Of a stretch of 11,231 nt of DNA, positions 4,046 through 7,232 are shown piece by piece. Made by a program: the position numbers and the translations under genes. Source of the stretch: an uncultured Aliterella sp. (GTDB lineage: Bacteria; Cyanobacteriota; Cyanobacteriia; Cyanobacteriales; Chroococcidiopsidaceae); NCBI GenBank assembly GCA_905479905.1, contig CAJQOK010000244.1, positions 1 to 11,231 on the forward strand, read 5' to 3'. The notes under the pieces were generated by a model, which worked only from the letters and a program-made list of their open reading frames with translations, had not been told where the DNA came from and did no database searches. The stretch's first letter is position 1. Every line of letters begins with the position of its first letter.

Positions 4046-5323
4046 CTAAAAAATAAAGATAATTTGCAAGTTCCAACTTTTATCTTGACGTACTATTTCA
4101 ATTTGCTGAATAAACTCCCGAAAGTAAAATCGCCGCTCTGATTCTGATAAATCAAGCCAAAACTGAGGAATTGAAACTAATTGAGCAACTGAGCGCAAAT
4201 TTACGGGAGGCAAAGTTGCTAATTTTCCCTGTAACGTCGAAATTTCAGTACGCAGGTTGTAAGTGCGTAGAGTTGCCGTCTCTATATCTAGGATGCCATT
4301 ATCGAGCAAATTTGGTATAAGCGCGAGAATTTCTTGCTTACTTGCAATTTCTGCTAACCAAGAATTTTTTACACCGTCTAACTGAGAAAAATTCACGCCA
4401 CTTACAGCTAAAGGTAAATCGCGGCAAATAGTTTGAATAGTTTGCTGCAATACTTCTTCGTAAATAAGACGACACTTAGGACGACGGGGACATAAAGTTG
4501 GGCGCAAGTAGAGGTATTCGCCCTTTTTGCGGGGCTTATTAACGCTAACAACAGTCATGGGCGACGAGCAGGTTATGCAACTAACTAATCCTGCTAAAGA
4601 ACGGTTAGCGCTGGCTGTACGCGGTGGTAAGCGACGATTGCGGCGCAATAAGCGATCAATTTGGGCGGCTTCTTCTCTAGAAATAATCGGCGGATGAGTA
4701 TCAGACAATATTTGTTCGTTTTGATAAGCCGTATCGCCACGATAAACGGGATTAGTTAACCACCGTTTTCCGGTAGTGACAGAGATTTTTTTACCATATT
4801 TTTGGGCTAAGTAACGCACCGCACCCCGCAAAGAACCGTAAAGCAAAAAGCGATCAAAAAAGTCTTTGACTACGGGGGATGTAGTACGATCTACGGCATA
4901 AAGATCTTTGATTCTGCGGTAGCCGTAGGGAACTTTACCGGGTGGAGTAAGGGCGTTGAGACGGTTACGGGCGTGTCCTTGGCGGATGCTGCGGCTATGC
5001 TGTTCGTATTGAATTTGTTGCAGTTGTACTAAGTCGGCTTGCATATCCGCCGCTTGTTCGGTAGTAATAAGTTTGATGTTGAGTGCTTGTAATTCGCTCA
5101 AACGATTGTTAATTTCTGGGATAGAGTCGCCAAGTTCTTCGATGCGGCGAATTAGCAGGTAATTGGCGGGATCGGTTTTTGCTTCTCGTAGTAGTTGCTG
5201 CAATTGCGATCGCTTTCCTAAGTCTTGATACAATTTATCTAGTTCCCACCCCCATAAATTCGGCTCTGGTGGTGCTTCTAGTAAAGGGTTTGTGTAACTG
5301 TAGGCGATAATTTTCATTGACAA
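4046..5323 (-). CDS. XisF-like serine recombinase homologue, catalytically degenerate
   Basis: The 425 residues follow the large serine-recombinase layout. There is a resolvase-type N-terminal domain (4-90), a linker helix and recombinase DNA-binding region (about 105-235, with PPGKVPYGYRR at 127-137 and NPVYRGD at 191-197), a zinc ribbon (C249, C252, C278, C284), and a C-terminal helical part ending in FYFREFIQQIEIVRQ. Such proteins are usually annotated as fdxN-element excision recombinase (XisF) homologues. The active site, however, does not fit. The Y-x-R-x-S strand is YSYTN (8-12), so R becomes Y10 and the nucleophile S becomes N12. The LDRLGR motif is IEELGD (61-66), so both arginines become acidic. 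A DNA-binding role without strand cleavage is my inference. It lies 17 bases after the VOC gene and is probably co-transcribed with it. I see no attachment sites or cargo genes nearby. Confidence 0.85.
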   Translation of the reverse strand: MSMKIIAYSYTNPLLEAPPEPNLWGWELDKLYQDLGKRSQLQQLLREAKTDPANYLLIRRIEELGDSIPEINNRLSELQALNIKLITTEQAADMQADLVQLQQIQYEQHSRSIRQGHARNRLNALTPPGKVPYGYRRIKDLYAVDRTTSPVVKDFFDRFLLYGSLRGAVRYLAQKYGKKISVTTGKRWLTNPVYRGDTAYQNEQILSDTHPPIISREEAAQIDRLLRRNRRLPPRTASANRSLAGLVSCITCSSPMTVVSVNKPRKKGEYLYLRPTLCPRRPKCRLIYEEVLQQTIQTICRDLPLAVSGVNFSQLDGVKNSWLAEIASKQEILALIPNLLDNGILDIETATLRTYNLRTEISTLQGKLATLPPVNLRSVAQLVSIPQFWLDLSESERRFYFREFIQQIEIVRQDKSWNLQIIFIF

Positions 5324-5340: not shown

Positions 5341-5703
5341 TTAGATTTGAGTCAGTTCGATAATATTGTTGTCTGGGTCTTTGGTAAATAAAGCACTTCT
5401 ACCAGAAGCGCTAGATTGAACAGAGTAATTACCAGCTATTAGTTGAGTTTTGGCGGCTTCTAAGTCAGCAACTTTAAAAGCAAGGTGGGGGTTGCGTCCT
5501 AGTTTTTCTGCGTTGTGTAAATCAGTAGAGATAGAGCTATCAACAATGAGATGCAGTTGAAAGTTGCCTATTTGATACCATGTACCGGGATAGTTAAGGC
5601 TGCGGTCAATTTTAGTTAAACCGAGAACATGACTATAAAAATCTTCAGCTTTTTGTAAATCTGTGACAAGTAAGGCTGTATGGAAACACTCAATAATTTG
5701 CAT
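5341..5703 (-). CDS. VOC-fold (glyoxalase/dioxygenase superfamily) protein
   Basis: At 120 residues this is one complete VOC domain made of two beta-alpha-beta-beta-beta modules. The first strand is CFHTALLVTDLQKAEDFY (6-23), the second module starts NPHLAFKVADLEAAK (71-85), and the end is FTKDPDNNIIELTQI (106-120). The four expected metal-ligand positions are H8, H51, H73 and E116, so a metal-dependent enzyme is plausible. Members include glyoxalase I, ring-cleaving dioxygenases and antibiotic-resistance proteins, and the substrate cannot be told from sequence. The gene is divergent from aroC across 115 bases. On the minus strand AGGA lies about 13 bases before the ATG, further than ideal. 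It leads the recombinase homologue in what looks like a two-gene operon. Confidence 0.85.
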   Translation of the reverse strand: MQIIECFHTALLVTDLQKAEDFYSHVLGLTKIDRSLNYPGTWYQIGNFQLHLIVDSSISTDLHNAEKLGRNPHLAFKVADLEAAKTQLIAGNYSVQSSASGRSALFTKDPDNNIIELTQI

Positions 5704-5818: not shown

Positions 5819-6910
5819 ATGGGTAATACTTTTGGGCATTTGTTTCGAGTCACTACTTTTGGTGAGTCTCACGGCGGCGGCGTTGGAGTGACAATTGATG
5901 GTTGTCCGCCACAATTGGAGATTACCGCCGAGGAAATACAAAAAGAATTAGACCGTAGGCGACCAGGACAAAGTAAAATTACAACACCGCGCAAAGAAGC
6001 TGATACTTGCGAAATTCTTTCCGGGATATTTGAAGGCAAAACTTTAGGTACGCCGATCGCTATTTTAGTGCGAAACAAAGACACTCGCTCTCAAGATTAT
6101 GATGAGATGGCGCAATCTTATCGTCCTTCTCACGCTGATGCTACCTACGATGCTAAGTACGGAATTCGCAATTGGCAAGGTGGGGGACGTTCTTCGGCGC
6201 GGGAAACTATTGGACGAGTGGCAGCAGGTGCGATCGCTAAAAAAATTCTTGCTACAGTTGCTAATGTAGAAATTGTTGCCTACGTTAAGCGCATCAAAGA
6301 TTTAGAAGCGGTAATCGATTCTAATACAGTTACCTTAGAACAAGTTGAAAGTAACATTGTACGTTGTCCTGAGACCGAATCTGCCGAGCGGATGATCGAA
6401 CTTATCGAGCAAGTAGGACGACAAGGCGATTCTATTGGGGGTGTAATTGAATGTGTCGCCCGTAACGTACCAAAAGGTTTAGGTTCGCCCGTTTTTGACA
6501 GAATAGAAGCAGATATTGCCAAAGGTGTAATGTCTCTCCCAGCAACTAAAGGGTTTGAAATTGGTTCAGGGTTTGCGGGAACTTTGTTAAATGGTAGCGA
6601 ACACAATGACGAATTTTATACCGATGAAAATGGCGAACTCCGTACAGTAACTAATCGCTCTGGTGGCGTTCAAGGTGGCATTTCTAACGGTGAAAATATC
6701 ATTTTGCGGGTAGCTTTTAAGCCGACAGCTACAATTCGTAAAGAGCAACGGACTGTGAATAAAGAAGGCGAGGAAATGCTACTCAAAGGCAAAGGTAGAC
6801 ACGATCCTTGTGTACTTCCTAGAGCAGTGCCGATGGTTGAAGCGATGGTAGCATTAGTATTATGCGATCATTTATTGCGCCATTACGGACAGTGTAAAGT
6901 GTTACCTTAA
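5819..6910 (+). CDS. aroC: Chorismate synthase
   Basis: The 363 residues match the usual length. The enzyme turns 5-enolpyruvylshikimate-3-phosphate into chorismate, the last common step of aromatic amino-acid, folate and quinone synthesis, and needs reduced FMN. The three family signatures are present: [18 protein letters not shown] near the start (15-32), [14 protein letters not shown] (102-115) with [18 protein letters not shown] (121-138), and [17 protein letters not shown] (327-343). Catalytic H18, H105 and D329 correspond to the known His-His-Asp set. The ATG at 5819 begins the conserved [19 protein letters not shown]. No obvious ribosome binding site precedes it, as is common in cyanobacteria. 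A HIP1 site lies at 6230-6237. Confidence 0.98.
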
Positions 6911-6914
6911 TAGT

Positions 6915-6951
6915 TACAAGATGGGCTTTTTGCCCGTTTTGTAGGTTTTAT
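6915..6951 (+). terminator. Rho-independent-type terminator after aroC
   Basis: Bases 6915-6926 pair with 6932-6943 around a five-T loop, giving 12 pairs with a GGGC/GCCC core and G-U pairs in the middle. GGTTTTATT follows. The hairpin starts five bases after the aroC stop, so aroC is probably transcribed mainly as a single-gene unit. Confidence 0.75.
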
Positions 6952-6977
6952 TGTTAGTAATAGTTGCAACTTTTTAA

Positions 6978-7232
6978 ATGAATTCAATTACAATTTTAGG
7001 ATTAGTTGCAGGTACGCTAACAACCCTGGCTTTTTTACCTCAGTTATTAAAAATCTGGCAAACTAAATCGGCTAAAGATATTTCTTTTAATACCCTAATT
7101 ATTTTTAATATAGGTATTTTCCTTTGGCTAATTTATGGAATTTATCTCAACGAATTGCCGATTATTCTAGCTAATTTATTTACTTTGATTTTCAACATGA
7201 TAATTGTATGGCTTAAAATTAAGTATAAGTGA
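6978..7232 (+). CDS. SemiSWEET-type sugar transporter (PQ-loop, MtN3/saliva half)
   Basis: The protein has 84 residues and three membrane helices (about 4-22, 38-56, 61-80), the size of a bacterial SemiSWEET, which dimerises to form one transport path. The first helix ends in FLPQLLKIWQTKSAKDIS (19-36), the conserved Pro-Gln hinge (P21, Q22) with the following basic loop. W50 in NIGIFLWLIYGIY and N66 in ILANLF sit where SemiSWEETs line the sugar pocket. It probably moves sugars by facilitated diffusion across the plasma membrane, but the substrate is unknown. It comes 67 bases after aroC, beyond the terminator, and 20 bases before the radical SAM gene, so it may head a three-gene run. Confidence 0.88.
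   Translation: MNSITILGLVAGTLTTLAFLPQLLKIWQTKSAKDISFNTLIIFNIGIFLWLIYGIYLNELPIILANLFTLIFNMIIVWLKIKYK

What the first reader, a model, noticed from the sequence alone, without database searches (positions are those of the whole stretch)
4046..5323. Serine recombinase homologue with the nucleophile and three catalytic arginines replaced
The sequence shows YSYTN (8-12) where resolvases have Y-x-R-x-S, and IEELGD (61-66) where they have LDRLGR. Aligned with gamma-delta resolvase, S10 becomes N, R8 becomes Y, R68 becomes E and R71 becomes D. The DNA-binding region, the four-cysteine zinc ribbon and the C-terminal domain are intact, and the frame is full length, so this is not random decay. I recall near-identical proteins in many cyanobacteria annotated as XisF-type recombinases. 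The inference is a domesticated recombinase that binds a fixed DNA site without cutting it, possibly a nucleoid, chromosome-architecture or regulatory protein. The lack of cargo or attachment repeats nearby agrees.
Basis: partly seen in the sequence, partly recalled or inferred. Interest (0 to 1): 0.72.

Follow-up and report, generated by a model that had tools for sequence, protein, structure and literature searches.

The report
Dead recombinase kept by cyanobacteria
Many cyanobacteria, including nearly all sampled from this one's order, carry a DNA-cutting recombinase whose cutting machinery was lost long ago while its DNA-gripping parts stayed strongly conserved, so it has probably become a DNA-binding regulator or chromosome organiser with an unknown target.

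Summary
The frame at 4046-5317 (-) encodes a 423-aa protein with large-serine-recombinase (LSR) architecture; an AlphaFold model (mean pLDDT 90.9) matches LSR and gamma-delta resolvase structures domain by domain. Catalytic residues are replaced: R8 to Y, S10 to N, D67 to E, R68 to E, R71 to D. D36 and R45 equivalents remain.

This is a family trait. Of 330 homologues scored (listed best hits), none keeps more than one of R8/S10/R68/R71; all have the four zinc cysteines. Nine other LSR-type proteins read from related genomes (five of them XisF) keep the active-site motifs.

The gene is in 98 of 105 same-order genomes (four copies damaged), reaches Thermostichus and Gloeomargarita, broadly tracks taxonomy, was not found on the plasmids or phages searched, and is under purifying selection (dN/dS 0.12; 0.05 in the DNA-binding domain). 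A VOC gene lies directly upstream in 48 of 108 loci. One genome has lost the catalytic domain but kept the DNA-binding half.

Best reading: an ancient, mostly vertically inherited, non-catalytic DNA-binding protein. Target unknown; regulation versus DNA bridging unresolved.

The parts
4046..5317 (-). CDS of the inactive large-serine-recombinase-like protein (423 aa, ATG at 5317; a TTG at 5323 would add 2 residues)
   Evidence: PF07508 E 4e-13, PF00239 E 6e-5; most homologues start at this ATG
5033..5317 (-). N-terminal resolvase-fold domain (residues 1-95), catalytic residues lost
5288..5302 (-). YSYTN (residues 6-10): Y6 kept, R8 to Y, S10 to N
5210..5224 (-). D32...R36: retained equivalents of D36 and R45
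   Evidence: D 328/330, R 323/330; alignment
5126..5143 (-). IEELGD (residues 59-64): D67 to E60, R68 to E61, R71 to D64
4958..5035 (-). long helix E (residues 95-120) linking to the DNA-binding part
   Evidence: AF2
4610..4945 (-). Recombinase DNA-binding domain (residues 125-236), the most conserved part
   Evidence: PF07508; dN/dS 0.048; A118 integrase match
4430..4609 (-). zinc ribbon (residues 237-296; C247, C250, C276, C282)
   Evidence: PF13408 (22.6 bits, below its 25.3 cut-off); the four Cys 330 of 330
4217..4390 (-). two long predicted helices, likely the LSR coiled coil (residues 310-339 and 345-367)
   Evidence: AF2; A118 4kis_B match spans residues 109-423
4049..4207 (-). conserved C-terminal segment PPVNLRSVAQ..QFWLDLSESERRFYFREF..IFIF (residues 371-423)
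5341..5703 (-). VOC/glyoxalase-like gene directly upstream, probable operon partner
   Evidence: PF00903 E 1e-9; upstream on the same strand in 48 of 108 loci, 9 of them overlapping by 4 nt

Best explanation
A large serine recombinase was domesticated early in cyanobacterial evolution into a host DNA-binding protein. It should no longer cut or rejoin DNA, because the nucleophile and three catalytic arginines are replaced throughout the family. It still has the LSR fold. By analogy with LSRs it should dimerise through helix E and grip a fixed DNA site with its recombinase and zinc-ribbon domains. Shown here: loss of catalytic residues, retained architecture (predicted structure), purifying selection strongest in the DNA-binding domain, mostly vertical inheritance, and a frequent VOC partner. 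Inferred: inactivity in a test tube, dimerisation, binding to one or few conserved chromosomal sites, and a role as transcription regulator (possibly of its own VOC operon) or as a DNA-bridging protein through its coiled coil.
For: 0 of 330 homologues keep more than one catalytic residue of the four. Other serine recombinases from related genomes keep the motifs in 9 of 10 loci, the tenth unreadable. LSR fold at pLDDT 90.9. Four zinc Cys in 330/330. dN/dS 0.117 overall, 0.048 in the recombinase domain, 0.169 in the dead NTD (830 non-independent pairs). 98 of 105 same-order genomes have a copy. The gene tree needs 30 changes for 28 labels (27 family codes plus the outgroup; minimum 27, shuffled mean 64.6). 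No family member among the listed plasmid and phage matches, and no relative confirmed in viral contigs. L183, in a one-contig genome, has lost only the NTD.
Against: No DNA binding, target site or phenotype was shown. No upstream motif common to the clades. The dead NTD still has strongly conserved positions (Y6, Y8, D32, R36, L62, G63 at 95-99%), so it does something beyond what DNA binding alone needs. The gene is lost or broken in some genomes (relic or fragment in G147 and G326; degraded in G159; split in G066; absent in G048, G103, G183, G268, G374), so it is not essential everywhere. Vertical descent rests on a quick tree; label f26 is not clustered on it.
Confidence: 0.72

Rival explanations
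1. DNA-bridging or chromosome-architecture protein: dimers on distant copies of a site pair through the coiled coil, as LSR synapsis does but without cutting. A sub-case of the best explanation, kept apart because the test differs.
For: Predicted coil helices and full LSR architecture retained; coil dN/dS 0.11.
Against: No site or site pair identified. HIP1, a tempting dispersed site, is unlikely as the target: the gene is present in genomes with few HIP1 copies (G177, G332, G241: 57, 42, 52) and has no match in one with 6745 (G407).
Confidence: 0.22
2. The old active-site pocket has been rewritten for another job (binding a ligand, metal or partner, or new chemistry) rather than merely disabled.
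For: The replacements are themselves conserved: Y8 313/330; acidic at both 61 and 64 in 296/330; D32 328/330; R36 323/330.
Against: Position 10 varies (D 220, N 53, E 11, T 11, R 9, others; some may be misalignment); all of 10, 61 and 64 are acidic in only 209/330; NTD dN/dS is the highest of the segments; one genome lost the NTD.
Confidence: 0.1
3. It modulates other serine recombinases, for example as an inactive partner in mixed complexes.
For: LSRs act as dimers and tetramers (family knowledge).
Against: All 23 relatives with a PF07508 match carry the family member, and in 19 it is the only PF07508 match; the plasmid XisF is only 24.6% identical.
Confidence: 0.03
4. Still an active recombinase using S9/T9 or another residue.
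For: Position 9 is S or T in 253 of 330.
Against: Position 9 also holds C, Q, I, G, A, N and others; R8, R68 and R71 are replaced, at 61 and 64 mostly by acidic residues; no family member on the plasmids or phages searched.
Confidence: 0.02
5. A decaying relic or annotation artefact.
For: Some genomes carry broken copies (G159, G147, G066).
Against: Uninterrupted near-full-length frames in most of the 118 carriers; dN/dS 0.117; hundreds of homologues with conserved replacements.
Confidence: 0.01

Closest known systems
XisF (fdxN-element excision recombinase of Anabaena/Nostoc)
   Same: Same LSR architecture in cyanobacteria; best NCBIfam hit
   Different: True XisF (L194, L200: 537 and 556 bits) keep Y-x-R-x-S and the R68/R71 motif; L200 lies on a plasmid and XisF is known from excisable elements (PMC4874684, passages); about 25% identical to the window protein, which misses the XisF cut-off
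Phage large serine integrases (A118, Bxb1, phiC31, SPbeta YokA)
   Same: Predicted fold of the domains; whole-chain TM-scores are low (0.2-0.45) because domain orientations differ
   Different: Active enzymes of mobile elements that bind attP/attB (family knowledge); this family lacks the active site and was not found on phages or plasmids
gamma-delta/Tn3 resolvase and Sin catalytic domains
   Same: NTD fold; D36 and R45 equivalents kept
   Different: R8, S10, R68, R71 replaced; helix A shortened; C-terminal LSR domains added

Membership tests
Active serine recombinase | Nucleophilic serine S10 | tested here: not met
   N10 in the window; S in 3 of 330 rows
Active serine recombinase | Catalytic R8, R68, R71 | tested here: not met
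   Y8, E61, D64; R8 and R71 in 0 of 330, R68 in 4 of 330, the Gloeomargarita group
Active serine recombinase | D36 and R45 | tested here: met
   D32 328/330, R36 323/330
Large serine recombinase (architecture) | Resolvase fold + recombinase domain + zinc ribbon + coiled coil | tested here: met
   four Cys 330/330. The zinc-ribbon Pfam model alone scores 22.6, under its 25.3 cut-off
XisF (NF041201) | NCBIfam equivalog cut-off 375 bits | tested here: not met
   127.4 bits; two true XisF 537 and 556
XisF (NF041201) | Carried on an excisable element | tested here: inconclusive
   No family member on plasmids or phages and gene tree broadly tracks taxonomy; element ends were not searched for
Sequence-specific DNA-binding regulator | Binds a defined DNA site | not testable with these tools
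   needs DAP-seq, ChIP-seq or EMSA
Nucleoid or architecture protein | Bridges or bends chromosomal DNA | not testable with these tools
   needs looping assays or Hi-C

The most novel reading that the evidence does not exclude
A previously undescribed chromosome-architecture or regulatory factor shared by much of the non-picocyanobacterial cyanobacteria, made from a large serine integrase disarmed before Thermostichus and Gloeomargarita split off, with its active site rewritten into a conserved acidic pocket and its DNA site fixed over that whole span.
Probability: 0.35. Interest if true: 0.82.

Novelty: new variant of a known kind. Interest (0 to 1): 0.64.

Why it matters
Large serine recombinases are known as mobile-element enzymes and engineering tools. 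Here one appears to have been disarmed and kept as a core, mostly vertically inherited gene over a wide part of a phylum, under the misleading label 'recombinase family protein'. If it binds a conserved site, that site and its role can be found with one DAP-seq or ChIP-seq experiment in a model strain, and the family would give a natural series of LSR DNA-binding domains uncoupled from cutting.

Tried and rejected
1) Common upstream or autoregulatory motif: an element ACGTCAAAATYTAAATAAA lies before the VOC gene in many Nostocaceae loci (seen). With up to 2 mismatches it matched 0-2 times per genome, in 5 of 8 genomes, 7 places in all against 21 for its reversed control. 8-mer enrichment over 184 upstream regions (top 30 printed) was led by pieces of that element, none in more than 32 regions, plus k-mers in 4-10 regions. 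2) HIP1 (GCGATCGC) as target: unlikely by presence/absence in 25 genomes. 3) Viral origin or mobility: 0 confirmed relatives in viral contigs; 86 phage records match, the 20 listed at 21-24% identity, and 5 plasmid records at 21-25%. 4) First AF2 run with 30 close sequences was poor (pLDDT 63.6); only the second was used. 5) S9/T9 as alternative nucleophile: see rivals. 6) aroC neighbourhood: a cluster at that place in 6 loci only. 7) Gloeobacter: f52 genomes G408, G417, G424 had no match; they are Gloeobacter-like by size only, names not available. Plastid or algal homologues were not tested.

Literature: eight searches on the protein and one on HIP1 listed no paper whose title or abstract start describes an inactive serine recombinase family in cyanobacteria. 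Seen: listings, plus passages of PMC5101192, PMC4874684 and PMC6188088; the last holds no domesticated serine recombinase in the passages shown. Subscription journals are not held, so this is weak evidence of absence.

Rows dropped before counts: one search left out L182, L183, L187 (broken or truncated), L002 and L088 (the window itself), rows with N or stop, and 5 duplicates; the first residue was set to M. One search's 191 rows include the window three times (WIN, L002, L088). One search covers the 330 distinct proteins listed (120 listed of 2524, 1435 and 332 hits), so it leans to the best hits. The VOC count uses 108 fetched loci (own window left out) of the 118 carriers, with limited flanks. 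The tree is a quick tree of 102 rows with long branches and cannot place the root.

Full report
OBSERVATION. The frame at 4046-5323 (-) is real and open. Pfam finds Recombinase PF07508 (4e-13), a weak Resolvase PF00239 match that begins only at residue 30 (6e-5), and a sub-threshold zinc ribbon. NCBIfam's best hit is XisF, at 127 bits against a cut-off of 375; true XisF proteins score 537 and 556.

FAMILY-WIDE AND CONSERVED. Among 330 proteins, position 8 is Y in 313, position 10 is D 220, N 53, S 3, position 61 is E or D in 314, and position 64 is D or E in 309. None has more than one of R8/S10/R68/R71; seven have one, four of which are the Gloeomargarita group with R68. The same picture holds in 191 rows from genomes and 178 distinct rows. 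As a control, 10 loci with other serine recombinases in related genomes were checked: 9 show Y-x-R-x-S and the R68/R71 motif (XisF L193-L197, near-identical copies from one genus; L221, whose frame is broken further on; L229; L230; L232), and L231 gave no readable N-terminus. The window genome's own small serine recombinase (L001/L198) has YCRVS and RWGRS, and 5 of 5 phage or plasmid LSRs checked (L199, L200, L201, L202, L204; L203 was fetched but not checked) are intact too.

SELECTION. Over 830 pairs of 82-97% identity, median dN/dS is 0.117; 0.169 for the NTD, 0.114 for helix E, 0.048 for the recombinase domain, 0.136 for the zinc part, 0.110 for the coil, 0.116 for the C-terminus (pairs are not independent). 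This is not decay, and the DNA-binding domain is the most constrained part.

DISTRIBUTION. In 386 genomes of the phylum, 122 match. Two of those (G048, G103) match only through an XisF-like protein and two (G147, G326) only as a relic or fragment, leaving 118 carriers. Of 105 genomes of the same order or closer (three listed without a match), 98 carry a copy; four of these copies are not intact (G014 without NTD, G066 split, G159 degraded, G229 in two pieces with extra sequence). No genome shows two intact copies; some genomes have two or three match pieces that were not examined. In 388 genomes of the class, 245 match at 1e-20, a count that includes G048 and G103 and some weak matches (G505, G544 near 1e-30). 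The f25 (small, picocyanobacteria-like) genomes among the listed non-carriers have none; only 20 non-carriers are listed per call. Deep members include Gloeomargarita lithophora (P0121) and Thermostichus (P0239, P0241). The gene tree needs 30 changes for 28 labels, that is 27 taxonomic family codes plus the outgroup (minimum 27; shuffled mean 64.6), as for mostly vertical inheritance; one label, f26, is not clustered. No family member is among the listed matches in 50,697 phage records and 72,556 plasmids, and no relative was confirmed in IMG/VR contigs, at the sensitivity used.

NEIGHBOURHOOD. A VOC/glyoxalase-like gene (window 5341-5703) lies directly upstream on the same strand in 48 of 108 phylum-draw loci, overlapping by 4 nt in 9, and in 61 of 80 named loci (earlier, cruder count). 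It is present in families f1, f2, f3, f5, f6, f7, f10, f13, f15, f16, f20 and f22, and was not found beside the gene in f4 (0 of 9), f8 (0 of 5), f9, f24, f27 and others, so it is a frequent but dispensable partner.

A NATURAL DELETION. In G014 (one contig; L183) the catalytic domain is missing: a full-length relative aligns only from residue 122 on, 55% identical over 314 residues, its first 125 residues find no meaningful counterpart in the locus, and the preceding gene ends close upstream. There the DNA-binding half persists alone, in a 347-aa open frame. It is one genome.

MECHANISM. Most likely a non-cutting DNA-binding protein with a fixed site. Whether it regulates transcription or bridges DNA cannot be decided here. 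The replaced pocket residues are conserved, which leaves room for a new binding role of the pocket. HIP1 as target is unlikely and no upstream motif common to the clades was found. Acting only on other LSRs is unlikely: all 23 relatives with a PF07508 match carry the family member and 19 have no other PF07508 match.

NOVELTY. No description of such a family was found in eight full-text searches of open-access papers, judged from listings and a few passages. It is a new, ancient, catalytically dead branch of a known protein kind.

CHECK.

Noticed in passing
L183 (G014), about 6144-7185 of the reverse strand: Orthologue with the catalytic domain absent and the DNA-binding half kept in frame, in a one-contig genome
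   Followed up: yes
upstream of the gene in many Nostocaceae loci (e.g. L007, L012, L064, L075): Runs of 7-base repeats (TGACTAA/TGACAAA/TGACCAA type) end at the start codon of the recombinase-like gene
   Followed up: no
upstream of the VOC gene in Nostocaceae loci (e.g. L054, L070, L075): Conserved element like AACTACGTCAAAATTTAAATAAA followed by CGCGATCGC just before the VOC start
   Followed up: partly
G147, G183, G268 (f4 g32, 2.8-3.1 Mb) against G143 (same genus, 4.8 Mb): Gene lost or a relic, and HIP1 count 103-142 against 2995, in the smaller genomes of one genus
   Followed up: partly
window 6978-7232 (+): 84-aa PQ-loop/MtN3 (SemiSWEET-like) gene just after aroC
   Followed up: no
L001/L198 (window genome, contig C123): Small serine recombinase (163-aa open frame) with YCRVS and RWGRS in the same genome
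   Followed up: partly
Gloeomargarita group (P0121-P0124): Keeps DRLGD, i.e. D67 and R68, while R8, S10 and R71 are gone: possibly a trace of the order of loss
   Followed up: no
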